NCBI GenBank assembly: GCA_032622095.1
Contig: CP136061.1
Span: 83,178,324-83,242,323 of the forward strand
Length of the DNA: 64,000 nucleotides
DNA from: Siphonodentalium dalli
Lineage: Eukaryota; Mollusca; Scaphopoda; Gadilida; Siphonodentaliidae
Direction: 5' to 3'
Shown: positions 3,938 to 62,688 of the stretch, one piece after another
Numbering within the stretch: the first letter of the stretch is position 1
Layout of the letters: every line of letters begins with the position of its first letter
The notes under the pieces: generated by a model
Seen by the model: the letters and a program-made list of their open reading frames with translations, nothing else
Told to the model about the DNA's origin: nothing
Databases searched by the model: none
Made by a program: the position numbers and the translations under genes

Positions 3938-4728
3938 ATGATGTCAAACTCAATAAAAATATTTGTTTGCTCTCACTGTTCGTCGAGGAAATTCTCCTTC
4001 AACAAGTTAATTAGGCATTTGCAGTCGATGCATGAGCACCAGCCAAACTTTAATGTCACTTGCAACATTAATGGCTGTCCACGCACTTATCAATATTGTT
4101 CATCATTCAAGAAACATTTTCAAAGAAAGCATTCTGATGACATTTGAGCCATGCTTCAAATATCTTGGTTGGTGTTGGTCAGGAAGCCGGTGTTGGTCAG
4201 GAAGTGCAAGAGCCCCAAGATGAACCAAATACTAGTACAAATGTAACTCTTGGTGAAAACGACGCTCCTTCTGTTGATGGTGATGATGATGATGTTTCTG
4301 GTGTGGATGAGCCTATTACGTTTCATCAGCTTTCTCAATCAATGAGAAATCAAATCGTTCTTTTCATTCTGAAGTTGAGGGAAAAGCACATTCTACCTAG
4401 GACAGTGCAGGAATCTGTGGCCAATGAATGTGTTTTTCTAAGCGACAGTTTCATTGATAACTTCAAGGCCTTCATTGAAACTCATCTTATTGATAATGGA
4501 TACAGTTTTGATGATGACCCTCAACTTGAGCACATTTTTGAGAGCAGAAATAATATGGGAGATTGTCTGGCTGAGTTGAAATCAGACTACAAGTTGAGAA
4601 AATTTTGTGCAGAGCATTTAAACCTTATTGAACCAGAAGAGGTGTTCCTAGGCCATGAAACCGGAAAAAACAGATGTTGCTTATTATGTACCTATTGGGG
4701 AAACACTGGCAGCAGTTTTGCAACATGA
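3938..4728 (+). pseudogene. N-terminal part of TNP2-like transposon gene (two C2H2 fingers), frameshifted
   Basis: The first frame (3938-4147) encodes two C2H2 fingers: C-x2-C-x11-H-x4-H (about residues 11-30) and C-x4-C-x12-H-x4-H (about residues 41-65). It stops at 4145-4147. The next frame (from about 4144) has no ATG of its own; it continues as an acidic, low-complexity linker and a helical segment. It ends at 4728 just after an A6 run near 4665-4672, where removing one A would join it to the 4655-6502 frame. Two one-base shifts therefore separate three pieces of one gene. In related animal transposon proteins, as I recall them, N-terminal C2H2 fingers precede exactly this transposase body. 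Decay is more likely than introns, since no GT-AG pair fits. A sequencing error in the A run cannot be excluded. Confidence 0.7.
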
Positions 4729-6502
4729 GACATTAGGGAAGCATATTTTTCATAATTTGTCATCTAAGGAAACTGATGAAGCTAGTGAAAAATTGTGTTT
4801 ATACAGTGATGGAGATATATTCAGAAGGAGTGAAAACTATCAGTCAAAGACCCTACAAATATTCATGTACAGTGATGAATTTGAAGTTGTAAATCCATTG
4901 GGGTCGAAAAAAACTAAGCATAAGCTTTGTGCATTTTATTTCACCATTGGGAATGTTTCGTCAAAATATCGATCACAATTGAGGCATGTCTATCTGGCGC
5001 TACTTGTGAAGAACCAACTTGTGAAAAAGTATGACTATTCCAAGATTTTGAAACCGCTCATTGATGATTTACAGAAGCTTTATGCTGAGGGAATAACTGT
5101 TTCAATAGAGGAGAGATCCCACCAGATATATGCAGTTTTAGCAGCAGTATCTTCAGATAATCTCTCTGCACATGCCATGGCTGGTTTCTCTGGCTCTTTT
5201 AACGCTGGTCGCATTTGTCGTTTTTGCATGTGCATATATGATGACATAGGGAAAACATCACATGAAGGTGCTTGTATCATAAGAAATGAAGTGGAACATA
5301 AGAAACATTTGGATTCTCTTGAGGTTGATGTAAAAAATGCTAAAATCTATGGCGTTCGAGGGAAAAGTCCATTTTTGTCCTTACCATATTTTTGTGTAAC
5401 TCAATGCTTCCCACCAGATATCATGCACGACATACTGGAAGGAGTGTGGCCTTTGCTTCTGAAATTGCTACTTATAAGTTTACACTCAGACAATATAATC
5501 AGTCTCACCCAATTTAATAATGCCTTAGAAGAGTTTAAATTTGGCAGAAATGACAAAAAGAGTAAACCTGTTACTATAAACCATAAAATTCTCAGAGATG
5601 GACAGATTGCTGGCAAAGCTTCAGAAAAATGGGTGCTCATTAGGATGTTTGGTCTTATTGTGGGAGATTTTGTGCCAAGCGACTATCTTCCATGGAGTTT
5701 ATATTCACAATTGCGAGACATTATGGACATGATTTTTGCTCCAGTTATAAAGCGGGAATGGTCGCCATATCTACAAATATTAATTTCGAATTTCATGACG
5801 AGTTTTGAAGCTATATATCCAGGAAAAATGACACCAAAATGTCACTATATGATTCATTATCATAGACTCATGACAGAGAATGGACCATTGAAACATCTCT
5901 GGTGCATGCGCTTTGAAGCCAGACACCAATATTTTAAACAGCTTTCTGGTGTTGTTAAAAATTTCAAAAATATTGCCTTCACGTGTGCCTCACGTTTTCA
6001 GTTGCGTCACTGTTGGGAGCTAGGAACTTCAGATGTTTTATCACAACCACTTTCAACATCTAAAGTTAAAGAATTGAAATTCTGCAATCTTACACAAGTA
6101 TTTCAAGACTTAATTCAAAACTATTATGGACTTGCATCGAGAGATGTTGAATTGGATGAAAATATATGGAAAGTGTCTTATCTTCACTGTGACAGTGGAT
6201 CATATTCAACAAATGGTGTCCTAGTAATTGATATGGTGCACGAAGAAGAGATACCGGTTTTCTTTCAAATCTTGCAGATAGTGAGATTCAGAGGAGACTT
6301 TGTCCTGTTTGGGAAACTACTCAAGAGTTGTGCTCTGAATTCACATTATACAGCATATGAAGTTCAGGACACCCATGAAACAGTTATTATCAGACCCGGT
6401 GAAGAAGCAGATCCGCATGCTTTGGACCTATATGAGAAAGATGATGGAAAGATGTATGTGGTACTCCACCATTCTGTTGTCCCAACTCCTGACTGCTGTT
6501 AA
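4655..6502 (+). CDS. TNP2-like (CACTA/EnSpm-type?) transposase, long open part
   Basis: A 615-codon open frame, by far the longest non-repetitive frame in the window. Landmarks in order: a 'GSKKTKHK' to 'FYFTIGNVSSKYRS' block (about residues 81-105), a Cys cluster 'GRICRFCMCIYDD' (about 185-197), 'CFPPDIMHDILEGVWP' (about 250-265), and 'TPKCHYMIHY' with 'WCMRFEARHQYFK' (about 395-430). I recognise these from a very abundant family of animal transposon proteins related to plant TNP2 transposases; the superfamily label is from memory. It would act in the nucleus to bind and cut element ends. The annotated ATG is only the first one in this frame; the true protein starts upstream (3938) and is broken there. 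No terminal inverted repeats were identified, so element borders are unknown. A short palindrome around 'cccatggc...gccatggg'-like words lies just after the stop. The copy is probably dead. Confidence 0.75.
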   Translation: MKPEKTDVAYYVPIGETLAAVLQHETLGKHIFHNLSSKETDEASEKLCLYSDGDIFRRSENYQSKTLQIFMYSDEFEVVNPLGSKKTKHKLCAFYFTIGNVSSKYRSQLRHVYLALLVKNQLVKKYDYSKILKPLIDDLQKLYAEGITVSIEERSHQIYAVLAAVSSDNLSAHAMAGFSGSFNAGRICRFCMCIYDDIGKTSHEGACIIRNEVEHKKHLDSLEVDVKNAKIYGVRGKSPFLSLPYFCVTQCFPPDIMHDILEGVWPLLLKLLLISLHSDNIISLTQFNNALEEFKFGRNDKKSKPVTINHKILRDGQIAGKASEKWVLIRMFGLIVGDFVPSDYLPWSLYSQLRDIMDMIFAPVIKREWSPYLQILISNFMTSFEAIYPGKMTPKCHYMIHYHRLMTENGPLKHLWCMRFEARHQYFKQLSGVVKNFKNIAFTCASRFQLRHCWELGTSDVLSQPLSTSKVKELKFCNLTQVFQDLIQNYYGLASRDVELDENIWKVSYLHCDSGSYSTNGVLVIDMVHEEEIPVFFQILQIVRFRGDFVLFGKLLKSCALNSHYTAYEVQDTHETVIIRPGEEADPHALDLYEKDDGKMYVVLHHSVVPTPDCC

Positions 6503-17512: not shown

Positions 17513-17750
17513 TGTTACGCCAGCTTTTGAAGTAACTGACCACTTTTGAAGTAGGTCTCCACCTTTGAAGTAAAAAACGCCAGCTTTTGAAGTAACTCAC
17601 CACTTTTGTAATAAAATCGCCAGCTTTTGTAGTAAATTGAGGTCTCCGCTTTTGAAGTAAAAAACGCCAGCTTTTGTAGTAAAAAAACTAGGTCTCCACT
17701 TTTGTAATAACAAAATTACAGCTTTTGAAGTAAACTGACTACATTTTGAC
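17513..17750. repeat. left subterminal repeat array of the 4.3-kb element
   Basis: Tandem but irregular copies of 'ccagcttttgaagtaa', 'ccacttttgaagtag' and 'cagcttttgtagtaaa', interspersed with 'aggtctcc'. The same blocks in reverse complement form 21455-21817. Multiple copies of a short word near the ends would be typical transposase-binding sites (inference). Confidence 0.8.
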
Positions 17751-17785
17751 GGGCGCTAAACGATTTTCATGACAAAGTCAACCGG

Positions 17786-18710
17786 ATAATCCATAGTGGC
17801 TATCGCCCATACGAGTGTGACTTGTGACTGAATATATTTAATGAGTCCAGTTCCATGACAAAAGAATCCACACCGTTAATCGACCATACGAGTGTGACGT
17901 GGTTTGAATAGCTTTCAGTCATACCAACACAAGAGAAACAGTCAATCGTCCATACGCGTGTGACGTGTACCAAAATGCACTTAGTGAGTCCGGTTCAGTG
18001 ACAAAAGAATCCACACCGGTAATCGACCATATGCATGTGACGTGGTTCGAATATCCTTCAGTCATACCAACACAAGAGAAATCACACAGTCAATCGCCCA
18101 TACACGTGTGACGTGTACCAAAAGGCACATAGTGAGTCCGGTTCCGTGACAAAAGTATCCACACTGGTAATCGACCATATGCATGTGACGAGGTTCGAAT
18201 ATCCTTCAGTCATACCAACACAAGAGAAATCACACAGTCAATCGTCCATACGCGTGTGACGTGTACCAAAAGGCACTTAGTGAGTCCGGTTCCGTGACAA
18301 AAGAATCCACACTGGTAATCGACCATATGCATGTGACGAGGTTCGAATATCATTCAGTCATACGAAGACAAGAGAAATCACACAGTCAATCGCCCATACG
18401 CATGTGACGTGTACCAAAAGGCACTTAGTGAGTCCGGTTCCGTGACAAAAGAATCCACACCCGTAATCGACCATATGCATGTGACGTGGTTCGAATAGCG
18501 TTCAGTCATAACAGCAGAAGATAATTTATAGAGTCAATCGCCCATATAAGTGTGACGTGTACCGAACGGCATTTAGTGAGTCAGTTTCCCTGCCTAAGCA
18601 TATGAACACACATAGGTGATCAATCATACGAGTATATAATATTGTTCCCAGTCAGCCTGACAGCCCACACTATTGAATGCCCTTACAAGTGCGACCGTTG
18701 TCAGAAGAAG
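17786..18710 (+). pseudogene. degenerate C2H2 zinc-finger array, left arm
   Basis: Units repeat every 148 bp (starts of 'gagtc' at 17986, 18134, 18282, 18430, 18578). Each unit holds the remains of two C2H2 fingers. In one frame 'RIHTVNRPYECDV' can be read at about 17863-17901, and 'QHKRNHTVNRPYACDV' in the alternate half-unit: the H-linker-RPYxCD core of a C2H2 array. The second Cys and most of the helix are damaged, and two 84-bp fingers are shortened to 148 bp, so the frame shifts from finger to finger. A better preserved finger remnant, 'HTIECPYKCDRCQKKF', lies at about 18665-18710. It cannot encode a working protein. Confidence 0.75.
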
Positions 18711-20439: not shown

Positions 20440-21430
20440 ATTTTGAGGAAATATACATGTTGCCATGTTACTGGACTGACAGAACGTCTTCAGACACACA
20501 TCTTGTCACCAGCGTGGATTCTCTTATATATTGTAAGACTCACGGTCATGGCGAACTTCTAACAAACGTCGCACCTATAAGGTCGGTCACCAGTGTGGAT
20601 CGTCAGGTTGACGGACAGACTGGGAACAACATTGCATACTCGTATGATTGACCACCTATGTGTGTTCGCATGTGCTTAGGCAAGGAACCGGACTAACTAA
20701 ATGCCTTTCTGGTACACGTCACACGTGTATGGGCGATTGACTGTGTGATTTCTCTGGTGTTGGTATGATTGGAGGATATTCAAACCACGTCACACTCGTA
20801 TGGTCGATCACCTGTGTGGATTCTTTTGTCACGGAACCGGACTCACTAAGTGCCTTTTGGTACAAGTCACACGTGTATGGGCGATTGACTGTGATTTCTC
20901 TTGTGTTGGTATGATTGGAGGCTATTCAAACCACGTCACACTCGTATGGTCGATGACCTGTGTGGATTCTTTTTGTCACGGAATCGGACTCACTAATTGC
21001 CTTTTGGTACACGTCACACGTGTATGGACGATTGACTGTGTGATTTCTCTTGTGATGGTATAACTGAAAGCTATTCAAACCACGTCACACTCGTATGGCC
21101 GATTACCGGTGTAGATTATTTTGTCACGGAACCGGACTCACTAAATGCCTTTTTATACACGTCACACGTGTATGGGCGATTGCCTGTGATTTCTCTTTTG
21201 TTCGTATGATTGGAGGCTATTCATATCACGTCACACTCGTATGGTCGATCACTTGTGTGGAATCTTTTGTCACGGAACCGGACTCACTAAGTGCCTTTTG
21301 GTACACGTCACACGTGTATGGGCGATTGACTGTGTGATTTCTCTTGTGTTGGCATGACTGAAAGCTATTCAAACCACGTCACACTCGTATGGGCGATGGC
21401 CACTATGGATTATCGGGTTGACTTTGTCAT
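20440..21430 (-). pseudogene. degenerate C2H2 zinc-finger array, right arm (mirror copy)
   Basis: The reverse complement of the left array: 'ggaaccggact' words recur at 20684, 20833, 20980, 21128 and 21274 (spacing 146-149 bp), with 'cacactcgtatggtcgat' and 'cacacgtgtatgggcgatt' alternating. Read on the minus strand it gives the same RPYxCDV cores. The two arms have diverged by scattered substitutions and one- or two-base indels. The inverted arrangement is therefore old, or was copied by a process that tolerates errors. Confidence 0.75.
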
Positions 21431-21454
21431 GAAAATCCTTCAGCGCCCGTCAAA

Positions 21455-21817
21455 ATGTATTGAGTCAGTTTACTTCAAAAGCTGTAATTTTGTTATTACA
21501 AAAGTGGAGACCTAGTTTTTTTTGCTACAAAAGCTGGCGTTTTTTACTTCAAAAGCGGAGACCTCACTTTACTACAAAAGCTGGCGATTTTATTACAAAA
21601 GTGGTGAGTTACTTCAAAAGCTGGCGTTTTTTACTTCAAAAGTGGAGACCTACTTCAAAAGTGGTAATTACTTCAAAAGCTGGCGTAACACACTTTACTA
21701 CAAAAGCTGGCGATTTTATTACAAAAGTGGTGAGTTACTTCAAAAGCTGGCGTTTTTTACTTCAAAAGTGGAGACCTACTTCAAAAGTGGTAATTTACTT
21801 CAAAAGCTGGCGTAACA
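21455..21817. repeat. right subterminal repeat array of the 4.3-kb element
   Basis: Reverse complement of 17513-17750, extended by a local duplication. The last about 120 bp (21697-21817) repeat the preceding block (about 21570-21690), including the 'gctggcgtaaca' end word, so the right arm carries two copies of the terminus. Confidence 0.75.
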
Positions 21818-25262: not shown

Positions 25263-26477
25263 TCACTCGTACATGTGGCGATAGTTGGAGTGAATCATCT
25301 TATGTTTCGATAGACTGCCTGATTGAGTGAATGTCTTCTCGCAAATATCACATTTGTACGGGCGATCGCCGGAATGGACTCTCTTATGTTTCGTCAGGTC
25401 GCTTGATTTAGTGAATAATTTCTCGCATATATCGCACTGGTATGGTCGATATCCAGTATGAATCCTCTTGTGTGAAATTAAATTTCCCGATTCGCTGAAT
25501 GATTTTTCACACATATCACACTTATAGGGACGGTCTCCAGAGTGGATTCTCTTATGTCTCGTCATGTGGCTTAATTGAGTAAATAATTTTTCGCAAATAT
25601 CGCACTGATATGGTCGATCTCCAGTGTGAATTCTCTTGTGTTCAGTCAAACTGCCCGATGTTGTGAATGATTTTTCACAAATATCACATTGATACGGGCG
25701 GTCGCCAGAATGGGTTTTCTTATGTCGCGTCAGTCTGCCTGATTCGGTAAATGTTTTCTGGCATATATCGCACTTATAGAGTCGATTTCCGGTGTGTATC
25801 ATCTTAATGACATTTTCCGACACCCTGATTGATTTGTCACATTCACATTCATACGGGCGGTCGCTGGGGTAGACGCTGTTATGTTGCGTCAAGTTGCTTG
25901 ATTTAGTGAATGGTTTCTCGCAAACACCACACTGATATGGTCGTTCTCCTGTGTGGATTCTCTTGTGTACTGTCAAATTACCCAACAATGTGAATGAATT
26001 TCCGCATATATCACAGTTAAATGGTTTATCACCAGTGTGAACCGTCTTGTGTGCAGTCAAATTTCCCGAATGAGTGAATGATTTACCACAAATATCACAA
26101 CTGTATGGGCGATCGCCAGAGTGGATTCTCTTATGTGTCGTCAGGCTGCTTGATTGAGTGAATGATTTCTCGCAAATATCGCACTGATATGGTCTTTCTC
26201 CAGTGTGAATTCTCTTGTGTTCAATCAAACTGCCCGATTGAGTAAATGATTTCCCACAAATACCACAACTGTATAGGCGATCGCCGGAATGAGTTCTTTT
26301 GTGATTTGCCAGATTGTGAGTATAAGTGGATGAATTTCCGTATATATCGCATATATATGGCTTATCACCGGTGTGAATCTTCTTGTGTGCAGTTAAACTT
26401 CCCGAAGTTGTGAATACCTGTTCACAAATATCACATTGATGTGGGCGGTCACCAGAGTGAATCATTTTACGGCCCAC
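25263..26477 (-). pseudogene. C2H2 zinc-finger array protein, about 14 fingers, probably decayed
   Basis: A 404-codon frame made almost entirely of 28-residue C2H2 fingers joined by H(T/S)G(D/E)(R/K)PY linkers. I count 14; about 11 keep all four ligands. Finger 2 has lost its second Cys ('CDIYGNS'), finger 7 its last His ('HNSVYPS'), and finger 8 has a deletion ('YECECDKS'). The first Met is not a natural start: the reading frame upstream continues as finger-like sequence after a shift, and no N-terminal effector domain (KRAB, BTB, ZAD) is visible. Downstream more broken fingers follow. If expressed it would bind DNA in the nucleus, but loss of ligands at both ends suggests a relic or a cassette within a larger, partly dead cluster. 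It shares wording with the finger remnants in the 4.3-kb inverted-repeat element. Confidence 0.8.
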
Positions 26478-27021
26478 AAGGTTACCAACGTGAATGGTTC
26501 CAAACAGATATCGTACTAATACCAGTGAATACCCATCAAAGAAAACGAATCAGTCGACAGCTTTGAAGTTTGAGTTTGACACGTTCTCTCCGATGTATAC
26601 ACAAGTCATCTTGACAACTCAATACTTTCCTGTAATAATACGAATATTGTTTATTTTTACTCTTGAAAACTGTATCGCAATTGGAGAATTTGCGATGGAA
26701 CCTGATATATAACTTATATAATAGACCAGAGACTAGTTAGCGTTGTTGAATGTTTTCATTATTCCTTTGTTAACGAAGTCAGAAAATGTTTGGTACTGAT
26801 TATTGGATACACTTGTTGGTTGTTCGATACAGTGCTATTGACAATGGACGATCCCAAAATGAATCGGAAAAGTCTGAATGCAATCAGGTAACAGGTGATG
26901 ACGTACTTATGTCCCAACCACGAGAACGTTTCCGGCTTCTTGAAACCAAGTGACGTCACATGTAAACACAATGCGCGTCTCGTTTCCAAGAATTTTAGTT
27001 TACGATGACACTTGTTTTGAT
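26478..27021. other. no supported feature
   Basis: Finger-like remnants continue for about 50 bp; the remainder is non-coding, with no promoter element that I can defend. Confidence 0.35.
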
Positions 27022-37065: not shown

Positions 37066-37399
37066 ATAATTGGGCCATGCGCTGATTAAAACAACACTGC
37101 AAACAATTGGTTGATACAAATTAAACTTTTGGTTGTTAAACTATAAATGTCATGAGTTTTTTATTGTCAAATTCTTGTGCTTTATTTTTTTCTGTGACAT
37201 AAACAACACTGATAGATCGGGTGGCAGAAAGACAACAGAGCTGCACACAAGAAGAAAATGTTAACCTGAAATAAAAAATAAAAAAATAGACATCTTCATA
37301 GTTATAGATACGTGTTTACGACGACAAAATACAAATATAGTTCCAAATGAATACTACAATTGGCTTACAATATTCACTAGATCTGCAGTTCATACATAG

Positions 37400-39775: not shown

Positions 39776-39873
39776 ATGCTGCGGTGCTCCTGGGTGAGAT
39801 TCGTTCCACATAAAAACTGCGTACTGTAGAAAGTTCAGCACACCTGATACCATGGCACACACGCCATACAGAG
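39776..39873 (-). CDS. SLC43-like transporter, exon E
   Basis: On the minus strand, acceptor 'acagtatttctcag' precedes 39873 and donor 'cagcat|gtgagt' follows 39776. Two bases complete a codon, then 32 codons read 'LYGVCAMVSGVLNFLQYAVF' and 'MWNESHPGAPQH'. This corresponds to the transmembrane helix that follows the conserved 'FPxxHFGTL' motif in SLC43 amino-acid transporters. It comes about 5.2 kb downstream of exon C on the gene strand. The small exon that should carry the 'FP..HFG' motif was not found between them, and exon C's end phase does not join directly. The terminal exon(s) further left were not recognised. Confidence 0.6.
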
Positions 39874-40868
39874 CTGAGAAATACTGTATTGGAAAGCTGA
39901 AAGAGGAATATTCCAACATTGAAGGTTATATTGCATATGACTTTTATGCGCGTCCAGATATGTCAGATATGAAATTATATCACATATATAACAGACGGTG
40001 TTATTCATGGTATTACTGTACATGTAAATGTTATATTATATGTATGTTATGCTTGCACCTGTCCACTGAGGTGTTATTGCAATACAATCATGTATCTTGT
40101 ATATTGCATGATTGGACTGGAATTGGCACATGACAAGTGTGTATAGGACTATGCCCTCTCACTCGAAAATTGACAAGCGCAAAAATAATTGCATCAAATC
40201 TCCTGCGCGTTTCGTAATGAGAAATATACATTGCCGGACAGCCAGTATTAGTCCAAGACACATGTCGTTTCGGTCGATAGCAGTATATTGTTGTTGGGGT
40301 ATATTCAAACTAGTGGGACAAAGACGCATACCAATTTAAGTAATTAATTAAATATTATATGTCTAAACGCCAGTAAAACCCCTGTCACACTCAGGCCGGC
40401 GCTCTCACTGCGCTGCAAAAGTACCAGCATATGAGTAACACGCAGGAGGAGCGCCGAAAACTGTCGAAAATTGTCAAACTTTTAAAACAAAGTATGCTCC
40501 TATTGCGTTCCTACTTTGTCAAGCCTCACGCTCTTAGTGCGTTCAAGTCGCTGTCATTGTGATGCTAGTACGTTCACAATAAGTTCGCAAAACGTTCTCT
40601 GCGCGGGCGCGGAGAGTATAGATAGCGCCTCCTGCGTTCTCCGGTCATGTCAGTTTTTATGTTGTGGGGAAAATACCCAACACTCCGCAATAGATTAGCT
40701 GTCCGATTAAACTACTGTCACACCCCGCTGCGATCAGGCCGGCGCTTGCATTGCGCTGAAACATAATCAAAGCGCCAAGCAAAGCGCAGTAAGGTATCCA
40801 AGAACGTATTGGTGACGCAGTTGACACTGGCTAGGACGGGAGAGAGTCTCCGTGATCGCCAGAGCGCC

Positions 40869-45109: not shown

Positions 45110-45293
45110 ACTTGTATTATGTAAGCCGCTGCCATGGTATATAGGATGGATCTGTACATGGCGACCAGTATGAATGTTATGTATATCAGCTCCTCCATTG
45201 GTATGATAATAACCACGGACATGAGTGTGGCCAGGATGCATGTCACCGCCAACGGTAGCACGGATGGTTTCAGCTGTTTATCATATTCACTGG
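45110..45293 (-). CDS. SLC43-like transporter, exon C
   Basis: Minus-strand acceptor 'gcttctttccacag' before 45293; donor 'caagt|gtgagt' after 45110 (a donor two bases earlier in the exon is possible). The exon reads 'ASEYDKQLKPSVLPLAV', then a hydrophobic helix 'LATLMSVVIIIP', then 'LIYITFILVAMYRSILYTMA'. The 'xxYxTFxLxxxxRxxxxxxxAxY' pattern is the penultimate conserved helix of SLC43 (LAT3/LAT4-type) facilitators of large neutral amino acids at the plasma membrane, and normally precedes 'FPxxHFG'. Its first two bases join in phase with exon B. Confidence 0.75.
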
Positions 45294-45913: not shown

Positions 45914-46021
45914 CGTGATTCTTGTGAAGTCGTATTTGCCAGTCATACAGCATCCCTGATAATACCGCGAAGAGAATTCCGGACATCAAGGTATAGAACC
46001 CGACGTCGGTGAAATAGCTGA
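45914..46021 (-). CDS. SLC43-like transporter, exon B
   Basis: Minus-strand acceptor 'atgatttcttcttttcag' before 46021; donor 'cacg|gtgagt' after 45914. The 108-nt exon gives 'SYFTDVGFYTLMSGILFAVL' and 'SGMLYDWQIRLHKNHG'. It matches the SLC43 segment with a 'xxVGxxQxxxGxxxxxxxGxxxDWxI' pattern: one membrane helix and the cytoplasmic 'DW' turn. Phases join exon A (ends with one base) and exon C (starts with two bases) exactly. Confidence 0.8.
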
Positions 46022-46641: not shown

Positions 46642-46821
46642 CTTGATCATGGTCGTTGTTGAGCCTGTGGTTGAGGAGAGGGTTGATTGTTCCCATGAAA
46701 TACAAATAGCGGAATTCTAAAAGGAAATGCCAGATGACATGGAAGATGAACTCTCCTGAGCAAAGGCACATTCTGAGCGTCCGTTTTAACTCCGGTTTGT
46801 TTTTTTCTGGCCGCTCTTTAC
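46642..46821 (-). CDS. SLC43-like transporter, exon A
   Basis: Minus-strand acceptor 'cgacagtatctttccag' before 46821; donor 'gatcaag|gttagt' after 46642. After two bases the exon encodes a charged loop 'KERPEKNKPELKR', then 'TLRMCLCSGEFIFHVIWHFL', then 'LEFRYLYFMGTINPLL' and a His/Asn-rich end. The 'LxxxLCSxxFxxxxxxxxxxxLRxxxYMxxxN' pattern is diagnostic of SLC43 after the large central loop. It ends in phase 1, matching exon B. Confidence 0.8.
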
Positions 46822-48030
46822 CTGGAAAGATACTGTCGAACTTCGAGTTATGTTGATCCTCTGGAAAAAGAATATAATAAAATCTGTTTGTAGAAATATT
46901 TGTCGACTACTGTGTTATAGTGTTAACAATCATTGGGTTGCAAACCTCATATATGGCTATGGTCGAACATTTTTTGACTGGAAACTAATGAGTTCCAAAT
47001 GTTGTCGAAAATTGGAAAACCGAAACAATGGTCCATTAAACCATTTTACAAACAATGGTTGAGGAGTAGACCTACGTTTTGCATAAATCCAGCCAACAAT
47101 GGCAGAAGATTTTCAAGAAAGAATTAAAAATTATTGGTTGTTAAAACATTTGAGAGGTTGACATTATTTTCTTCATGGTCGTTTTCGGTACCAAGAATTG
47201 CTACAATAATTAATAATTACACACAACACTCCAATCACAATATAATTGTCTTTGCGCTATAAGATGAGGTTTGATTTGTGTCATAATGTTGAGTTTTATT
47301 AGCACAATATAGCGTCATCCTTCCATATATTATAATGGAGACTAAATCAGTCACACACATTCCAGCACACCCAATATAAACAATGTTGATATGCAGTTTG
47401 GTACACTAAAGCAGAGAGTAATCAACTGTAATTAGGTCCCATGTTAAGATACATATGTGGTCAGCTTCAAATTGTTTTCAAACTATGACCCGGAACTCAT
47501 TTCAGCCTAATTGGTCATTGATCAACTGGCATGACATTCTCAAATATAGACAATTATGTATGAGTAGTTGCCTTTTCTAAACGAAAATAATCAGTTAATT
47601 TCACACATAAAGAATAATTAAATCTCCTGTAATCATCTTCAGATATGGTATCACAGATATATGAATTGAACTTTTGAAAACAATCTATCTTACAAAATGA
47701 GATTATGATATCCAATGGTTCTATGATTCTTAAATATTGTGTAACATTAATCGCTTGTACCAAATTTCACAAAGACACGCATGTCAGCTTTTATCAAAAT
47801 CCATTTTGAAATACCAGTACATTTTTGAAAAACGTGCGTCAGACTCTTAAATGAAAATCAATAGCTTAACCATAGGAATGTTCAAGTGTGGCCTGCTAAT
47901 ATGGTCACTGACACCAAGCGACATTGGGAATTAAAAGATCTATTGAGAAATGTTTTGAAAACTGTACATGCCTTCTGTATGTCATATCACAAATGAAGTA
48001 CTTAGACTAGTTGCAATGTGTCAGTGGCGG
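46822..48030. other. intron of SLC43-like gene, nothing recognised
   Basis: AT-rich, with small open frames that lack splice context or homology. The only other feature of this intron is the SINE just to the right. Confidence 0.4.
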
Positions 48031-48362
48031 GGTGGGCTCGGTGGCTCAATCGGTTAGGTGTACAACTCCAAGCGGTTTCGCCCTCCAGTGCTGGCGATAA
48101 GGGTTAAAATTCATATGTTTCCATCGAATGATTGCATTGCCATCGATCGGTTTTTCAATTTCAATTTTTGATAGGTTCGCTTTTCGAGTCAAATTTTAAA
48201 TAATGGTGGAGTTGCCAGTTACTGGCCGACGAGTTTGTCAGCCAATGAAATCAATGTTAGATTAGCCGTAAGTGTGCGGATTTTCTCCACCACTACAACT
48301 GACAATGTCGTGATATGGCGTTAGTTTCTCAAAGCGACATTAAACCCCAATCAATCAAACAA
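48031..48362 (+). mobile_element. tRNA-derived SINE
   Basis: The head contains a good RNA polymerase III A box ('ggtggctcaatcggttagg', 48040-48058) and a weak B box ('gggttaaaattc', 48101-48112). These are spaced as in a tRNA but with no cloverleaf that I would trust as a functional tRNA. The tail ends 'cattaaaccccaatcaatca' + 'aac', the familiar ending of molluscan SINEs. About 330 bp, in the intron between exons D and A. Confidence 0.75.
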
Positions 48363-48922
48363 TTATGAGAGTGGCCACAATGATGGACTTGTCCGATACA
48401 AAGAAGCGTGTGTCCGTGGGTATAGTCCGAATTTATCACAGAACAAACGTTCATTTGAGCTAGATATACACAGGCCTGTTTAATTTACCGTTCCCATTTT
48501 GTCGAATTTTTTAAACCTTCACCACAATCATGTTACACAGCTGTTTACTACATTTATCCGGTGAGGATAATCCCTTTGCACTACCTTGTGGATAAGATTT
48601 ATATCAACGCCATCATGTGGTTCCATGTCCGGGCGGCTCAGCAGGGGGCTGGCACGTCAGTATTATCAATGCATGTTTCCAATCAAAGTGAGTAAAAGTC
48701 AAAAGCAACTTTACTAATTGACTACCCGATGATAAGTAGCTTGGTGTTTGATTGTTTTGTGTTTAAATTTTCAGCTATAAGTTCATGTAACTTTGTTGAA
48801 CAAATTATCTGAACATCTCAACAAATAAATTAATTTGAATCAACAGGGCAGTTCTTTATATGTCGCCTGCTTCGATGAATATATATTTCCTATACAGGAA
48901 GACTATTCCAATAGATGCTTAC

Positions 48923-49174
48923 ATAATTGAATTGGATGAACCAGTTATGTGTGAATGGGTTAAGTATAAACTCAGGACTTAAATAAATACCATCAAGTTT
49001 CCGTGGTTTCTCAGCGTTATTCTCTACTGGCCGCTCTATTTCTGTATCCTTATTTTGTTTTAATGGCTGGCATTGCGGCAATAAGATAAATGTGCTGAAC
49101 AGAGTCATGACGCTAAATAGCGACGCAAAGAAGATGAAGGAATACATCGGACTGACCCCGTTTTCGTATGCAAT
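48923..49174 (-). CDS. SLC43-like transporter, exon D, acceptor inside the minisatellite
   Basis: On the minus strand the last minisatellite unit supplies the acceptor 'cgtgtatatccacag' before 49174. The exon then reads 'IAYENGVSPMYSFIFFASLF', 'SVMTLFSTFILLP' and a hydrophilic loop rich in Asn, Glu and Lys. 'YxxGVSxxxxFxxxAxxxxxxxxxxFxLLP' fits the SLC43 helix before the central loop. Two donors are possible: 'aattat|gtaagc' after 48923 (strong, phase 0) or 'gatg|gtattt' after 48991 (weaker, but phase 1, which joins exon A in frame). I favour the shorter exon on phase. Upstream exons (first five helices) must lie right of 49174, beyond one or both satellite arrays, and were not found. Confidence 0.65.
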
Positions 49175-50518
49175 CTGTGGATATACACGAAGACATACAA
49201 TCTGTGGATATACACGAAGACATACAATCTGTGGATATACACGAAGACATACAATATGTGGATATACACGAAGACATACAATATGTGGATATACACGAAG
49301 ACATACAATATGTGGATATACACGAAGACATACAATCTGTGGATATACACGAAGACATACAATCTGTGGATATACACGAAGACATACAATATGTGGATAT
49401 ACACGAAGACATACAATATGTGGATATACACGAAGACATACAATCTGTGGATATACACGAAGACATACAATATGTGGATATACACGAAGACATACAATTG
49501 GTGGATATACACGAAGACATACAATCTGTGGATATACACGAAGACATACAATATGTGGATATACACGAAGACATACAATCTGTGGATATACACGAAGACA
49601 TACAATATGTGGATATACACGAAGACATACAATCTGTGGATATACACGAAGACATACAATCTGTGGATATACACGAAGACATACAATATGTGGATATACA
49701 CGAAGACATACAATATGTGGATATACACGAAGACATACAATCTGTGGATATACACGAAGACATACAATATGTGGATATACACGAAGACATACAATTGGTG
49801 GATATACACGAAGACATACAATCTGTGGATATACACGAAGACATACAATATCTGGATATACACGAAGACATACAATCTGTGGATATACACGAAGACATAC
49901 AATATGTGGATATACACGAAGACATACAATCTGTGGATATACACGAAGACATACAATATGTGGATATACACGAAGACATACAATCTGTGGATATACACGA
50001 AGACATACAATATGTGGATATACACGAAGACATACAATCTGTGGATATACACGAAGACATACAATATGTGGATATACACGAAGACATACAATCTGTGGAT
50101 ATACACGAAGACATACAATATGTGGATATACACGAAGACATACAATCTGTGGATATACACGAAGACATACAATCTGTGGATATACACGAAGACATACAAT
50201 ATGTGGATATACACGAAGACATACAATATGTGGATATACACGAAGACATACAATCTGTGGATATACACGAAGACATACAATCTGTGGATATACACGAAGA
50301 CATACAATATGTGGATATACACGAAGACATACAATCTGTGGATATACACGAAGACATACAATATGTGGATATACACGAAGACATACAATCTGTGGATATA
50401 CACGAAGACATACAATCTGTGGATATACACGAAGACATACAATATGTGGATATACACGAAGACATACAATCTGTGGATATACACGAAGACATACAATCTG
50501 TGGATATACACGAAGTTA
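49171..50518. repeat. 27-bp minisatellite array 1, about 50 units
   Basis: Unit (plus strand) 'tctgtggatatacacgaaga' + 'catacaa', 27 bp. I count 50 units with three main variants at two or three adjacent bases: 'tctgtgg' (26), 'tatgtgg' (22, one with an extra change) and 'ttggtgg' (2). Because 27 is a multiple of three and the unit lacks stops in most frames, several frames stay open through the whole array on both strands; these are not genes. It is directly fused to the 3' splice site of SLC43-like exon D. Confidence 0.95.
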
Positions 50519-50705
50519 AAGGGTCGAAACATGATATGACATGCGCTTAGCGTGGCATATAGTCAGCAAACTGCAACTGATGACGTTCTTATCAAAACAT
50601 TCTGGCATCTTTTTAACTCATTGGGAGAATTTTTCAAAAACCTAGAAATTCTACCTTTGGCATTAAATGAATCTTATTTCGATGGGGTACGTTCAAAAAC
50701 TATTT

Positions 50706-51023
50706 TCAAAATTCTAATAAACCGCTCCAGGGTCCAGCTTCCACCTCAAAATTCATGTCATCAGAACGAGGAGCAAATTGTCTGCGGGAAATTGGGACCT
50801 TGGTCATCATCACATATAGCCTAGAATCTTCTTTAATATGCATACAGCAGACAACCTCCCCTTTCTTTTGACATCCATGCATTTGTGAACCACCTTCATT
50901 TTGTGGGGAAATTATATGACAGATAGGTTGAAAGCCGTTAATTCTTTCACTATACTTATGTTCACAAACGGAAAGGCCGCAAGTCCCGTCAGCCAGTGCT
51001 CCATTCTGACTTTTTATTGTCAT
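50706..51023 (-). CDS. orphan exon-like open frame, Cys-rich
   Basis: Minus strand, acceptor-like 'acctagccctccag' immediately before the frame, which then stays open for about 105 codons to a TGA. It contains 'DGTCGLSVCEHKYSERING' and 'MHGCQKKGEVVCCMHIKED', six Cys in all, without a signal peptide or membrane helix. I do not recognise a domain. It lies between the two minisatellite arrays on the same strand as the SLC43-like gene but shows no resemblance to that family. It may be a terminal exon of another gene or a chance frame. Confidence 0.35.
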   Translation of the reverse strand: MTIKSQNGALADGTCGLSVCEHKYSERINGFQPICHIISPQNEGGSQMHGCQKKGEVVCCMHIKEDSRLYVMMTKVPISRRQFAPRSDDMNFEVEAGPWSGLLEF

Positions 51024-51738
51024 TCTGGAGGGCTAGGTGTGTTTTTTCGTGCATATATATTTGTATATATATAATATTATTATCTCTACCCATATAATAA
51101 TTGTTGTGAGATATAATGCTCAATTACATTTATCTTAAGTATATAATCTAACCCTATATATTATGCTTCATAATCCTAAGGTAATAATTTACTGGTGTTA
51201 GTGAGTACTTTCCAGCATGCATACATCTCACAATAAGATGTATTACCCCATGTACTCATCTAAATTAATTATTCGGAATCTTGTTTAAGTGTTTAACCAC
51301 CACCTATATGTAACATAGTCATATACGGATTGTAATATGTAAAGATACTTCACGATGACAGATATGATAGCTATATATAGCTAACTTGGTCACATAAAGA
51401 GCGTTTAACAATATAATATAGAGAGCGTTTAACTCTAATTATACCTACAGTGTATATATTATAATACTATATGGGGGGACTATACTACCGCTTTATATAG
51501 ACCGTACATTATGCACCGACCGGTATCAATTGTGTGTAAAATTCTTATGACAAATGCGTTCTTAGCCGTTTTACCTTTTTCTTTAGTTGACTTTCAAAAA
51601 GGCCTTCTGGTCAACCTGCCAGCACATTACTTTGACTTTTCTCAGTCTTTCTGGTGTGCTAGGTGTGGGGTCGCTAACCTTGACAGTTCTGCTACCCGGT
51701 CAGACACCCCCTTACCTTGTATGGTTACACATAAAAGC

Positions 51739-54548
51739 AATATGTGGATATACACGAAGACATACAATATGTGGATATACACGAAGACATACAATCTGTG
51801 GATATACACGAAGACATACAATCTGTGGATATACACGAAGACATACAATATGTGGATATACACGAAGACATACAATCTGTGGATATACACGAAGACATAC
51901 AATCTGTGGATATACACGAAGACATACAATATGTGGATATACACGAAGACATACAATTGGTGGATATACACGAAGACATACAATCTGTGGATATACACGA
52001 AGACATACAATCTGTGGATATACACGAAGACATACAATATGTGGATATACACGAAGACATACAATATGTGGATATACACGAAGACATACAATTGGTGGAT
52101 ATACACGAAGACATACAATCTGTGGATATACACGAAGACATACAATCTGTGGATATACACGAAGACATACAATATGTGGATATACACGAAGACATACAAT
52201 TGGTGGATATACACGAAGACATACAATTGGTGGATATACACGAAGACATACAATATGTGGATATACACGAAGACATACAATATGTGGATATACACGAAGA
52301 CATACAATCTGTGGATATACACGAAGACATACAATCTGTGGATATACACGAAGACATACAATATGTGGATATACACGAAGACATACAATTGGTGGATATA
52401 CACGAAGACATACAATTGGTGGATATACACGAAGACATACAATATGTGGATATACACGAAGACATACAATCTGTGGATATACACGAAGACATACAATATG
52501 TGGATATACACGAAGACATACAATTGGTGGATATACACGAAGACATACAATCTGTGGATATACACGAAGACATACAATCTGTGGATATACACGAAGACAT
52601 ACAATATGTGGATATACACGAAGACATACAATTGGTGGATATACACGAAGACATACAATTGGTGGATATACACGAAGACATACAATTGGTGGATATACAC
52701 GAAGACATACAATTGGTGGATATACACGAAGACATACAATATGTGGATATACACGAAGACATACAATTGGTGGATATACACGAAGACATACAATATGTGG
52801 ATATACACGAAGACATACAATTGGTGGATATACACGAAGACATACAATTGGTGGATATACACGAAGACATACAATTGGTGGATATACACGAAGACATACA
52901 ATTGGTGGATATACACGAAGACATACAATATGTGGATATACACGAAGACATACAATTGGTGGATATACACGAAGACATACAATCTGTGGATATACACGAA
53001 GACATACAATCTGTGGATATACACGAAGACATACAATATGTGGATATACACGAAGACATACAATTGGTGGATATACACGAAGACATACAATTGGTGGATA
53101 TACACGAAGACATACAATATGTGGATATACACGAAGACATACAATATGTGGATATACACGAAGACATACAATCTGTGGATATACACGAAGACATACAATC
53201 TGTGGATATACACGAAGACATACAATATGTGGATATACACGAAGACATACAATTGGTGGATATACACGAAGACATACAATTGGTGGATATACACGAAGAC
53301 ATACAATATGTGGATATACACGAAGACATACAATCTGTGGATATACACGAAGACATACAATCTGTGGATATACACGAAGACATACAATCTGTGGATATAC
53401 ACGAAGACATACAATATGTGGATATACACGAAGACATACAATCTGTGGATATACACGAAGACATACAATATGTGGATATACACGAAGACATACAATCTGT
53501 GGATATACACGAAGACATACAATCTGTGGATATACACGAAGACAAACAATTGGTGGATATACACGAAGACATACAATTGGTGGATATACACGAAGACATA
53601 CAATTGGTGGATATACACGAAGACATACAATCTGTGGATATACACGAAGACATACAATCTGTGGATATACACGAAGACATACAATCTGTGGATATACACG
53701 AAGACATACAATCTGTGGATATACACGAAGACATACAATCTGTGGATATACACGAAGACATACAATATGTGGATATACACGAAGACATACAATCTGTGGA
53801 TATACACGAAGACATACAATATGTGGATATACACGAAGACATACAATCTGTGGATATACACGAAGACATACAATATGTGGATATACACGAAGACATACAA
53901 TCTGTGGATATACACGAAGACATACAATCTGTGGATATACACGAAGACATACAATTGGTGGATATACACGAAGACATACAATCTGTGGATATACACGAAG
54001 ACATACAATATGTGGATATACACGAAGACATACAATCTGTGGATATACACGAAGACATACAATCTGTGGATATACACGAAGACATACAATATGTGGATAT
54101 ACACGAAGACATACAATCTGTGGATATACACGAAGACATACAATTGGTGGATATACACGAAGACATACAATTGGTGGATATACACGAAGACATACAATTG
54201 GTGGATATACACGAAGACATACAATTGGTGGATATACACGAAGACATACAATATGTGGATATACACGAAGACATACATTCTGTGGATATACACGAAGACA
54301 TACAATCTGTGGATATACACGAAGACATACAATCTGTGGATATACACGAAGACATACAATCTGTGGATATACACGAAGACATACAATCTGTGGATATACA
54401 CGAAGACATACAATATGTGGATATACACGAAGACATACAATCTGTGGATATACACGAAGACATACAATCTGTGGATATACACGAAGACATACAATCTGTG
54501 GATATACACGAAGACATACAATCTGTGGATATACACGAAGACATACAT
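51739..54548. repeat. 27-bp minisatellite array 2, about 104 units
   Basis: Same unit and orientation as array 1, separated by about 1.2 kb of unrelated sequence. The 'ttggtgg' variant, rare in array 1, makes up roughly a third of the units here. A 14-unit block occurs twice (about 52.1-52.5 and 53.0-53.4 kb). On the minus strand the array ends at 'attgcttttatgtgtaacca' followed by 'tacaag|gtaagg', a good donor-like sequence. Open frames of up to about 1,000 codons are artefacts of the 27-bp period. Confidence 0.95.
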
Positions 54549-54711: not shown

Positions 54712-54868
54712 GATATAGATGTGCTTATATACACAATGTGTTTGTATCGATTCATATATCGCGACGAGGCAAGTTGTCGTGGCCATATAGCTATATGGCC
54801 ACGAAAACTAGCCGAGTCGCGATACGTGAATCGTTACAAACACATTGTGTATATAACACATTTATCTA
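54712..54868. mobile_element. foldback element of about 150 bp
   Basis: 'tatacacaatgtgtttgta' pairs with 'tacaaacacattgtgtata', and the stem continues through 'atcgcgac' to a tip 'gtggccatatagctatatgg'. Arms differ at several positions. Confidence 0.75.
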
Positions 54869-56222: not shown

Positions 56223-56311
56223 TGATTAATTCGCACTCTAATCAAACTTTGTTGTTTTTGCAACAGTTGTCTGATTAATTCGCACTCTAATTAGACGTTG
56301 TTGTTTTTGCA
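56223..56311 (+). repeat. duplicated 3' splice-site region in the MULE intron
   Basis: Two copies of a roughly 42-bp block ('tgattaattcgcactctaat' ... 'ttgttgtttttgca'), at 56223-56266 and 56272-56311. The first ends in CAACAG, the second in CAG at the used acceptor. Confidence 0.8.
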
Positions 56312-56801
56312 GATAAATCAAGCCTTTCTAGAGGCCAACGCCCCTGACTTCTATCATATCGACGTCCACTGCACCGAGACCAGCAGACGACATGTTGTGT
56401 TCTACACGGAGCGCAAACTTCAACTTCTCGCCAAGTCCAACGTCTGGTACCTGGATGCAACATTCCGTGCCATCAGCAAACAACGGTCTCAACTTCTGTC
56501 CATCCACTCATTCGTCAAGTGCAACGACAACTACAAGCAGGTCCCTTTGGCGTTCGCCATCATGGAAGGTAGAAAGAAAGCTGACTACTATTCAGTGCTC
56601 CGAGCCACAGACAAACGACTACCATCGAACATCAGACTCCAACGATTTGTCTTAGACTTCGAGGCTGGAATGTGGCAGGCCATTCGACAACGTTTTTCAG
56701 GTTACCCGATTTGTGTTTGTGCTTTCCACTCTGGTCACAAGCCGTGTTCAGGAAGGTTCAAGACGTCGGCCTTCATGTGTGTAAAACAGATTGTTTTTTA
56801 A
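56312..56801 (+). pseudogene. MULE transposase core exon, frameshifted
   Basis: After acceptor 'gttgtttttgcag' the frame reads 'INQAFLEANAPDFYHID', then 'RRHVVFYTERKLQLL', 'VWYLDATFRAISK', 'QLLSIHSFVK', 'KQVPLAFAIMEGRKKADYYS' and 'VLDFEAGMWQAIRQRF'. 'LDATF' carries the first and 'LDFEAG' the second catalytic Asp of the MULE-type DDE transposase. At about 56728 the 'CxFHW' motif is disrupted: the frame reads 'CAFHSGHKP', while a one-base shift restores 'WSQAVFRKVQ'-type wording typical of the family. The third acidic residue and the rest of the protein are missing before the right-end repeats. The copy is dead, but its splice structure is still readable. Confidence 0.75.
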
Positions 56802-59530: not shown

Positions 59531-61225
59531 TTAAACATTCTCAGCTGCTGTTCGGTCAACATATAATTTCCAAAGATAAGCACATTTCCTCACAAAAAAG
59601 TCGATTAGATAAATTTCAACTTCTGCGGATTCATGTACGAGATCATTACATCTAGATAGAAATATGCGTGTTTTAGATTCAGTATCGAGTGAGTCAAATT
59701 TTAGATAAACGTCCACGTGAAATTCATTTAGTAGTTCATATTCGATAAGATCCCTATCACGATGTAACGAGGAGCTAATGCATGGGACACTATATCTGTG
59801 TATTTTAATCGACAGAGTGAGCAATTTTCTTCTTCGGTTTGTAATATAGACAACAGTCGCGCAACAATTAAATATGACTCTTTGTTTTTGGGGAATTTTC
59901 GACAATTTTGCCATAATTGGGACATATGACGACTGGAATGTATGTCATGGAACCGAATAAGTCTATTATCGCTTAATATGTTTTGTGTCCATTCTGCATC
60001 GTTTATTTCCGACCAATGTTGTCTGACTTTTCGCTTCCATGTTGTCGGATTTAAAAAGGATCTATGACGAATAAACGCTTCCAGTTCCCCTGTCAACTTA
60101 TATTTGTCAAAGATAAAAATGATATCGGCCATGAAATTCCCTGAAAATTTAACGAGGCCCGTCAGATATTGATGTAATCTCGTGAAAAATAATTGTTTAC
60201 CGGTTTTGTTGGATTTTAAGTTGCACAAGGAACCAAAAAATGACATTTTACGTTTTTCAATTATTGCATTTATTGGCGACATACCGACCAAACCGCATGC
60301 TATATTTGTTGATGTTCGTCTATGTAAACCCTGGTAATATTTTATGCAGAATCGATGAGTTTTCTCAAGTCGATCAACACAATTTCTATTGAGATCCCAT
60401 AGTAATTCAGAACCATAAAGACCTTTAGATAAGACTACTGATGAATATAACATCGTGCAACTCTGTGGCGTTATTCCACCGGGATAAACTCCTGCGTTTG
60501 CTAGCATCATGAGTGCACTTCTTAGTTTGTCACAAATGCGTTCAACGAAAGCAGTATTGAAATCATATTTGTCGATGGGTATGCCAAGATGAGTAGTTTC
60601 TGTGCATTCTTCCACCCGATTTGCACACAAAGTCCAATTTTTTGCTCGATTAGAAAATTCATTTTTGGATTCGTTTAAAACCAGAACCGAACATTTATTG
60701 GAGTTATATCTGTACCGCCATTTGTTACTGTATTTTTCACAAATATTACATAATTCCGACAACCCCGTACTACTCAATGAGAGCAATACCATGTCATCTG
60801 CGTGTGTAGGACAAGTATAGTTGACGCCGAGTATAGTAAGACCATATGGTGACTCTGATAACAATTTTATCAATTCGTCTACGTATATCATGTAGTACAG
60901 AGGCGAGAGAATGCTTCCCTGTCTGGCGCCCTGTTGTACATCGAACCAACGCGAATATGTTTCATCATATCGGATACAAAATTGAACAGTTTTGAGTAGT
61001 TGGTTTATCAGTTTAAATGTATGTCCTTGCATTCCACGTTTATGTAGTTTGTATAATAGACAATCAATCCAGACAGTGTCAAATGCTTTCCATACGTCTA
61101 GAAAGAAGCAGTATAATTTCTGATTGCAATCGGAAGTGTAAGAAATGCATTCCCTCAAAAGGTATGATGTCATTGTTGCGCTTACACTTTTTTGGAAACC
61201 ATGTTGTAACGGGTGTACTGAGCAA
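59531..61225 (-). pseudogene. LINE 2: 5'-truncated reverse transcriptase with HADD motif
   Basis: The minus strand enters inside an RT domain near 61225 ('LQHGFQKSVSATMTSYLL' with frame shifts), then a 481-codon open frame runs 61173-59728: 'YCFFLDVWKAFDTVWIDCLL', 'GARQGSILSPLYYMIYVDEL', 'CPTHADDMVLLSLSS' (active site, HADD instead of YADD or FADD), a thumb region, and 'CSLCRLKYTDIVSH' (Cys-x2-Cys ... His). One more frameshift at about 59750-59770 moves the C-terminal 75 codons to another frame ending near 59531. The 5' part (endonuclease) is absent. It joins LINE 1 head-to-tail in the same orientation, so it inserted into, or recombined with, that element's 3' end. Clade not assigned. Confidence 0.8.
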
Positions 61226-62688
61226 AGTCTACGTAAAAAAAATTACGTCTTTCAAATTGAGTATGTCGTCTAGGATATCAATAGTCGCGTTTTGTATACT
61301 TGTAAATTGTCAGGGCATGAGACGTTTTCTAGCCTCGATTAAACTTTCGCATTCCATCAAGTAGTGCATTTCATCTCCAAGTTGACGTTTATTACACAGA
61401 GGACACAATTCTACGAAGAACAGTGGTGTCGTTCCATCGGCCTTTCTCTATTGGCAGGCGATGATTACTCGTGCGGAATTGGCAGAGAGTTATTCTATTT
61501 TTGGTATCCAAGTAATCCAAATATGTTTCGAATTTTATATCATGTTTGAAAATTTTATATGTGTTGCCTCTGCTAGATTGTTCAATATCAGACAACCAGG
61601 TTGTGCGGAATTGACTATTTAAACTGCGCTTGGGGTATGACATTAATGTTTCTGGACATGGGATATTTTCCATGTTCCAAAATGAATCTGCCCACAATTT
61701 GTTAGGATGGTCTTTATTTTTTCCATCCACTGGAATGTTACTGTTGAAACTTCACATACTTTTATGGCTAGTAAATATAAAGTCTTACAGAATCTGCTCT
61801 GGTTCATATTCTTAATTTTCATCCAATATTTCACAATACGCAGGTTGATTGTATATTCAATGGGCAGTCTCCCACTCTCACCATATAACATAACATTGGG
61901 GGTGGATGATTTCAGATGTAGAACTTGCCTTATAAATTTTCTGTGCATAACTTCAAATATATCATTATTTCCTGACCCCCATACCTGGCAGCAATACAAC
62001 GTGACTGGCAAAATTTTAACTGACAAGCAATGTATTCTAGATTTGGAGATAATTGAATACATTGCCTTAGTTGCTTTATTCATCAAACTTTTTTTTGTAT
62101 TCGAGTACGAGCCTGATTTTGTATGTACAATTCCAAGATAGTTAAAGTTCTTGACAACTTCAATTATATGTCCATTGTATGTAAATATTCTATTTTTAGG
62201 CAGCTTCGTTTTGAAATCAACATTATTTTTGTTTTTTTCAATGTTGACACTTAATTTCCACTTCTCACAGTACTTTTGAAAACTATTAAGTGCTTTCTGC
62301 AAATTTAACGGTGTTTCAGCCATAAGTACGGTGTCATCTGCATATACAATAATAAATAGTTTGACATATGTCTGCAAATGGGTCTCTATATCCCGTGACA
62401 TTTTTGACAAACCCCGAACACCATTCGTATTGAGAAAATCTTCCAGGTCATTGAGGTAAAGTGAGAACAGTAGTGGTGATAGGTAGTCACCTTGTCGTAC
62501 TCCAGACAATCATGGGAAACAATCGGAAGTTGTATTGCCCATACGAACCTTCGATTTGATGTTTGTGTACATATTTATAATAACCGTGAGTAGTTTTCCA
62601 TTTATATCATTGTTAATGAGTTTGTGCCATAGCCCTTTCCTCCACACCTTATCAAATGCTTTCTCAAAATCAATAAATGCACAATACA

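What the first reader, a model, noticed from the sequence alone, without database searches (positions are those of the whole stretch)
48923..50518. Minisatellite made of tandem 3' splice sites, with an on/off variant exactly at the AG
Seen directly: exon D of the SLC43-like gene (minus strand) starts at 49174, right after 'tatatccacag', and this acceptor belongs to the first unit of a 50-unit, 27-bp array. On the gene strand each unit is 'attgtatgtcttcgtgtata' + 'tccacag'. The three unit variants read ...CCACAG|A, ...CCACAT|A and ...CCACCA|A, so the polymorphism creates or destroys the AG. By my count 26 of 50 units keep AG and the exon-proximal three all do. Inference: the array grew from the intron-exon border and now forms a ladder of competing or decoy acceptors. 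Mutation of AG might be selected to silence distal acceptors, or may be neutral drift spread by unequal exchange. I know of no described case of a long array with this ternary acceptor state.
Basis: partly seen in the sequence, partly recalled or inferred. Interest (0 to 1): 0.85.

Follow-up and report, generated by a model that had tools for sequence, protein, structure and literature searches.

The report
Minisatellite that duplicates a splice acceptor
In an animal transporter gene, what looks like the end of an intron has been copied 50 times in a row, and about half of the copies still look like usable splice sites; it resembles a mirror image of a known human repeat, and which copies are used could be tested with RNA.

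Summary
A 27-bp array of 50 units (49171-50515) ends four bases inside exon D of an SLC43A3-like gene; the AG that fits exon D belongs to unit 1. Units have three states there (AG, AT, CA); 26 of 50 keep AG in register.

Four things change the reading. (1) A second array, 104 units with the same variants (51738-54547), lies 1.2 kb upstream and touches no exon I could find. Its AG share is not different (45/104 against 26/50, p 0.39), so I see no sign of selection silencing distal acceptors. (2) 27 nt is 9 codons without a stop, so each in-register AG keeps the frame: 0 to 441 added residues. (3) The best-scoring branch-point-like motif (CTTTAAC) sits 18 nt before the most distal AG; no unit holds a yTnAy motif. 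(4) A close precedent exists: the human ABCA7 25-bp VNTR includes the exon-18 splice donor.

Most likely: a minisatellite born by tandem duplication of a 3' splice junction, drifting neutrally at the AG, with few exon-proximal units used. Usage is untested: no RNA, no related genomes, and the upstream exons were not found in the window.

The parts
49171..50515 (-). Array A: 50 units of 27 bp (gene strand ATTGTATGTCTTCGTGTATATCCAC + AG/AT/CA), ending 4 nt inside exon D
51738..54547 (-). Array B: 104 units of the same 27 bp with the same three variants; touches no exon that I could find; 45 of 104 keep AG
50516..51737 (.). 1.2-kb sequence between arrays A and B, no match elsewhere in the window; no terminal inverted repeat among the repeats listed and no clean target-site duplication by eye
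50515..50521 (-). Branch-point-like CTTTAAC, branch A at 50516, 18 nt from the G of the most distal AG of array A
   Evidence: approximate weights recalled
49175..49176 (-). AG of unit 1, presumed acceptor of exon D
50498..50499 (-). AG of unit 50, most distal acceptor-like AG of array A; its use would add 441 in-frame residues
49852..49853 (-). Off-register AG made by a substitution in an AT unit; its use would shift the frame relative to the other AGs
48991..49174 (-). Exon D of SLC43A3-like gene (184 nt, donor ATG|GTATTT)
46642..46860 (-). Exon E
45914..46021 (-). Exon F
45110..45293 (-). Exon G
39776..39896 (-). Exon H
37182..37265 (-). Exon I, last coding exon with stop codon

Best explanation
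Array A is a minisatellite that arose by tandem duplication of the 3' splice junction of an SLC43A3-like gene (inferred). It has left the gene with 26 in-register copies of the acceptor AG (shown), each of which keeps the same reading frame into exon D because the unit is 27 nt and free of stops (shown). I think splicing mostly uses the AG next to the exon, with occasional use of units 2 and 3 (+9, +18 residues), because exon definition with the exon D donor favours a 184-nt exon over one of up to 1.5 kb (inferred). The remaining units are intronic filler. The AG/AT/CA variation is neutral, carried along when blocks of units are copied (inferred).
For: The array ends in register with the exon. 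Joining the two flanks around one unit gives a complete ordinary intron end, CCCTTTAACTTCGTGTATATCCACAG|ATTG, with the highest branch-point score of the seven acceptors compared (4.8; the others 2.8-3.9). The six exons are open and in phase with a clear match to PDB 9l38. The AG share does not differ between A and B (p 0.39), and B shows a 16-unit block repeated at an offset of 32 units, reached by 2 of 2000 Markov simulations, as expected of block duplication. The unit-1 AG has an upstream AG-free stretch (27 nt) like exons E (23) and I (28), and a best branch-point score (2.8) like E, H and I (2.8-2.9). In ABCA7, where the donor is in the repeat, one-unit retention was a minor isoform (I read the passage '14 and 2%, respectively' as 2% for it; PMC5954066).
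Against: No RNA. By the first-AG rule (PMC1431707, passages) a branch point at 50516 would select the most distal AG. The acceptor is weak: 65% pyrimidine from -20 to -4, against 71-88% in the five other acceptors. Array B, away from any exon found, is not explained by growth at the junction and needs a second seeding step. A itself has no block duplication beyond chance (11 units, reached by 344 of 2000 simulations). Exon start and unit agree at only 6 of 9 bases after the AG. yTnAy occurs at 2.2% of intron positions here, so one at a good distance is not rare by chance.
Confidence: 0.5

Rival explanations
1. The distal AG is the working acceptor: a canonical branch-point-like motif lies just upstream of unit 50 and none lies inside the array, so the whole array is exonised and the transporter carries 441 extra residues (CLRVYP[Q/H/P]IV repeats) just before the part that matches ENBT1 from residue 179.
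For: CTTTAAC is 18 nt from the distal AG and outscores the best candidate of the other six acceptors compared; no yTnAy in any of 154 units; first-AG rule; exon version of 502 residues is open.
Against: A given frame of dinucleotide-shuffled units is open in 74% of trials, so openness is no evidence. Among this gene's other acceptors H has no yTnAy within 60 nt and I has them only at 13 and 6 nt; E has one at 17 nt. A 1.5-kb internal exon after an intron of more than 13 kb is unusual (recalled). The 502-residue version has no Pfam match, though the ordinary 299-residue part has none either.
Confidence: 0.2
2. The 27-bp unit is an independent satellite; array A reached the exon border by chance or by spread from B and replaced the old acceptor.
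For: Array B is twice as long, in the same orientation, and touches no exon found; all three variants are shared, so they predate the split or are exchanged. In one of six loose searches (right of B, minus strand) a unit-like stretch scores 27, one above the maximum of 20 shuffles.
Against: The other five loose searches of the rest of the window do not exceed shuffled maxima. Ending exactly in register at an exon start is improbable for a random site in more than 14 kb of upstream sequence (inference).
Confidence: 0.2
3. Selected decoy ladder: distal acceptors are mutated to AT or CA by selection so that only proximal ones work.
For: The first three units keep AG; nearly all the variation lies in the AG dinucleotide.
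Against: Three AGs in a row have probability 0.13. No gradient in A; B's AGs lie farther from the exon than chance. 23 in-register AGs beyond unit 3 remain in A and 45 in B.
Confidence: 0.04
4. Gene or region is not expressed, or upstream exons are gone, and the splice reading is moot.
For: No N-terminal exon found in the 14.8 kb upstream inside the window, while the same kind of profile found four of six C-terminal exons at E below 0.02.
Against: Six downstream exons are open and in phase, with AG and GT at their borders. The upstream exons may lie beyond base 64000.
Confidence: 0.06

Closest known systems
ABCA7 intron 18 VNTR (human; PMC5954066, 12 passages read)
   Same: A long minisatellite with a unit of similar size (25 bp) that abuts an exon and includes that exon's splice site; one-unit retention seen in RNA; longer alleles go with more skipping of the next exon.
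   Different: There the donor (GT) is in the repeat, here the acceptor (AG). There one-unit retention shifts the frame, here every in-register unit keeps it. There one-unit retention did not change with VNTR length. In the passages I read there is no account of a three-state loss of the splice dinucleotide.
NAGNAG and other tandem acceptors (PMC3250501, start of abstract in listing only)
   Same: More than one AG can act as 3' splice site, giving in-frame isoforms.
   Different: Sites 3 bases apart there; here 27 nt apart and 26 in-register sites in a minisatellite.
Intron gain by tandem genomic duplication (PMC4974935, title and start of abstract in listing only)
   Same: Tandem duplication as a source of new splice-site sequence.
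   Different: There a duplication is tied to a new intron; here many copies of what seems an existing 3' junction.
Ratchet points of recursive splicing (recalled, no paper read)
   Same: Each AG unit reads CAG|ATT|GTATGT, an acceptor next to a donor-like site.
   Different: Ratchet points have no bases between AG and GT; here three. The donor matches 6 of 9 consensus positions; 48 of 502 AGs in the gene's other introns have one as good within 12 nt.

Membership tests
Minisatellite | Head-to-tail units of roughly 10-100 bp with high identity | tested here: met
   27 bp, 50 + 104 units
Minisatellite (VNTR) | Copy number varies between individuals | not testable with these tools
   one sequence only
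Splice-site-spanning VNTR (ABCA7 kind) | Unit contains the flanking exon's splice site and the array abuts that exon | tested here: met
   unit-1 AG at 49175-49176 next to exon D; exon D's start rests on sequence match and phase, not on RNA
Splice-site-spanning VNTR (ABCA7 kind) | RNA shows unit retention or length-dependent splicing | not testable with these tools
   no RNA held
SLC43 transporter gene | Sequence match over the C-terminal part in one ordered set of exons | tested here: met
   E 2.1e-30 to 9l38; phases match
SLC43 transporter gene | N-terminal segments (ENBT1 residues 1-177) | tested here: inconclusive
   not found in window; may lie beyond base 64000, so I describe it only as the 3' part of an SLC43A3-like gene
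Selected decoy-acceptor ladder | AG loss depends on distance from the exon or differs from a control array | tested here: not met

The most novel reading that the evidence does not exclude
The array is a working in-frame splice ladder: the spliceosome uses several of the 26 in-register acceptors, so one gene makes a series of transporters that differ by 9-residue steps (0 to 441 residues), and the AG/AT/CA state of each unit sets which rungs exist in an individual. An extension is that the donor-like GTATGT in almost every unit (49 in A, 103 in B) lets the array be removed in steps.
Probability: 0.12. Interest if true: 0.8.

Novelty: new variant of a known kind. Interest (0 to 1): 0.5.

Why it matters
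It is a natural experiment for how the spliceosome picks one AG among many identical ones at equal spacing: the first AG after the branch point, or the AG nearest the downstream donor. With the frame kept at every in-register rung and almost only the AG differing between units, one long-read RNA data set would answer it. It would also show that splice acceptors, like the donor of ABCA7, can lie inside and perhaps seed minisatellites.

Tried and rejected
No whole genome is held for the window, so the array could not be sought elsewhere in it. Exact pattern scans of bacterial/archaeal genomes and of viral contigs found 0 stretches each; these say nothing about animal genomes. Rfam (gathering thresholds) and ARAGORN found nothing in the window.

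Rejected: insertion of a mobile element that split one array into A and B. The repeat search lists no terminal inverted repeat of the gap, I saw no clean target duplication by eye, and five unit bases at the break are not accounted for. Rejected: segmental duplication of exon D with the array; the gap matches nothing else in the window. Rejected as evidence: open reading frames across the arrays, since a given frame is open in 74% of shuffled units. Odd but unexplained: the unit has no stop codon in any of six frames, reached by about 0.5% of shuffled units; noticed after the fact.

Literature: nine answered searches in open-licence PubMed Central only. One search matched 364 papers of which 25 were listed, none of the 25 with the word minisatellite counted. 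I read passages of two hits (PMC12783039; PMC3045353): both speak of minisatellites in introns, and the passages do not place an acceptor inside the unit. The other hits of these searches, ABCA7 and PMC1431707 apart, were seen only as listings. Finding no acceptor-side case is weak evidence of absence.

Full report
The array. On the + strand the unit is CAATCTGTGGATATACACGAAGACATA. 154 anchors lie in the window, all on one strand; 152 of 153 gaps are exactly 27 bp, and the one exception (1244) separates array A (50 units, 49171-50515) from array B (104 units, 51738-54547). On the gene strand (minus) the unit reads ATTGTATGTCTTCGTGTATATCCAC followed by AG, AT or CA. Counts: A 26 AG, 22 AT-type, 2 CA; B 45 AG, 30 AT, 29 CA.

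The gene. Exons D to I on the minus strand (49174-48991, 46860-46642, 46021-45914, 45293-45110, 39896-39776, 37265-37182) have AG at their starts, GT after their ends (I ends in a stop) and matching phases, and give 299 residues followed by a stop. The protein matches Equilibrative nucleobase transporter 1 (9l38; SLC43A3 by recall) at E 2.1e-30 and Large neutral amino acids transporter small subunit 4 (9jbs) at 2.5e-12. Pfam gave no family for it at E up to 1. The match to 9l38 begins at residue 2 of exon D, so the exon begins at or near 49174, where the AG of unit 1 stands; taken alone exon D matches 9l38 at only E 0.52. The N-terminal third was not found in the window with the recalled SLC43A3 or with a two-sequence profile (best E 0.88, on the other strand near 11.7 kb), while the C-terminal profile found four of the six exons at E below 0.02 (D and F only at 0.6 and 0.5). 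The sequence upstream of D without a detected exon is therefore at least 14.8 kb; the upstream exons lie beyond it, were missed, or are lost.

Origin. The array stops four bases inside the exon in register. Its other end is preceded by CCCTTTAA; together with the first unit this makes CTTTAAC, 18 nt before an AG, a plausible place for a branch point. With rough weights recalled from the yUnAy consensus it scores 4.8, above the best candidate of each of the five other acceptors (2.8 to 3.9) and of the unit-1 AG (2.8). Taking away all but one unit gives a plain intron end. I read this as birth by tandem duplication of the junction. Caveats: yTnAy motifs are common (193 in 8583 intron bases), the unit's nine bases after AG match the exon start at only 6 of 9, and array B needs a second event.

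Which AG is used. All 26 in-register AGs keep one frame and would add 0, 9, 18, 54, 63... 441 residues; the longest version of exon D is open. One further AG at 49852-49853 is out of register; if the upstream exon ends in phase 0 it would give a premature stop. Two principles pull apart. [quoted passage not shown] Exon definition (recalled) favours the AG nearest exon D's donor. Since an AG within about 12-15 nt of a branch point can be bypassed (same paper), a branch point at TATCCAC in unit 2 could serve unit 1. By this scoring exons E, H and I have signals no better than unit 1 (2.8, 2.9, 2.8 against 2.8), though their pyrimidine share is higher (0.82, 0.71, 0.88 against 0.65). I put proximal use first at moderate confidence.

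Selection on the AG state. Array B serves as an internal control because it touches no exon that I found. AG share does not differ (26/50 against 45/104, p 0.39); the three-state make-up does (CA 2/50 against 29/104; chi-square p 0.002). In A, AG units are not closer to the exon (74% of permutations had a mean index as low or lower); in B they lie farther (98.9%). Units are not independent, so these values are rough. AG counts along A then B, exon outward: 12/25, 14/25, 13/35, 10/35, 22/34. B carries a 16-unit block repeated at 32 units' distance (2 of 2000 Markov simulations reach it); A's longest block is not unusual (344 of 2000); A and B share no long block (8 units, reached by 751 of 1000). 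This fits neutral spread by block copying, shown for B only.

Comparison. The ABCA7 VNTR has a 25-bp unit; the first two bases of the array are the exon-18 donor; alleles run from about 12 to about 427 copies; a cryptic donor one unit downstream retains one unit (25 bp, out of frame); skipping of exon 19 rises with VNTR length, while one-unit retention does not (PMC5954066, passages). The present array is the acceptor-side counterpart, with the frame kept. I file it as a new variant of a known kind. My searches showed no acceptor-side case, in an open-licence library only and mostly from listings.

Donor-like site. GTATGT occurs 49 times in A, 103 times in B and not between them, three bases after the variable dinucleotide in nearly every unit, and stays constant while the AG varies; 69 read CAGATTGTATGT. 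It matches 6 of 9 donor positions, the same as exon D's own donor, while the donors of E to H match 7 or 8; a donor this good follows 48 of 502 AGs in the other introns within 12 nt, so this may be chance.

Noticed in passing
51738-54547: Second array of 104 units of the same 27-bp repeat, 1.2 kb upstream in the gene's sense, with the CA variant far commoner (29/104 against 2/50).
   Followed up: yes
49171-54547: The unit has no stop codon in any of the six frames, found in only about 0.5% of shuffled units. Unexplained, noticed after the fact.
   Followed up: partly
49171-54547: Donor-like GTATGT three bases after the variable AG in nearly every unit, constant while the AG varies.
   Followed up: partly
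54715-54865: 151-bp near-palindrome (88% to its own reverse complement) about 170 bp beyond array B.
   Followed up: no
17524-18589 and 20684-21817: Two repeat blocks (148/146-bp units and short CTTTTGAAGTA-like units) that look like inverted copies of each other, judged by eye from the TRF consensus units.
   Followed up: no
25263-26549 (-): ORF of 428 residues with 11 C2H2 zinc-finger stretches (Pfam zf-C2H2).
   Followed up: no
59728-61242 (-) and 61643-62509 (-): Two ORFs with reverse transcriptase domain (RVT_1).
   Followed up: no
56295-56801 (+) and 4652-6502 (+): MULE-type and Plavaka-type transposase ORFs.
   Followed up: no
48020-48370: Looks like a tRNA-derived SINE (recalled motif); ARAGORN and Rfam did not report it.
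   Followed up: no
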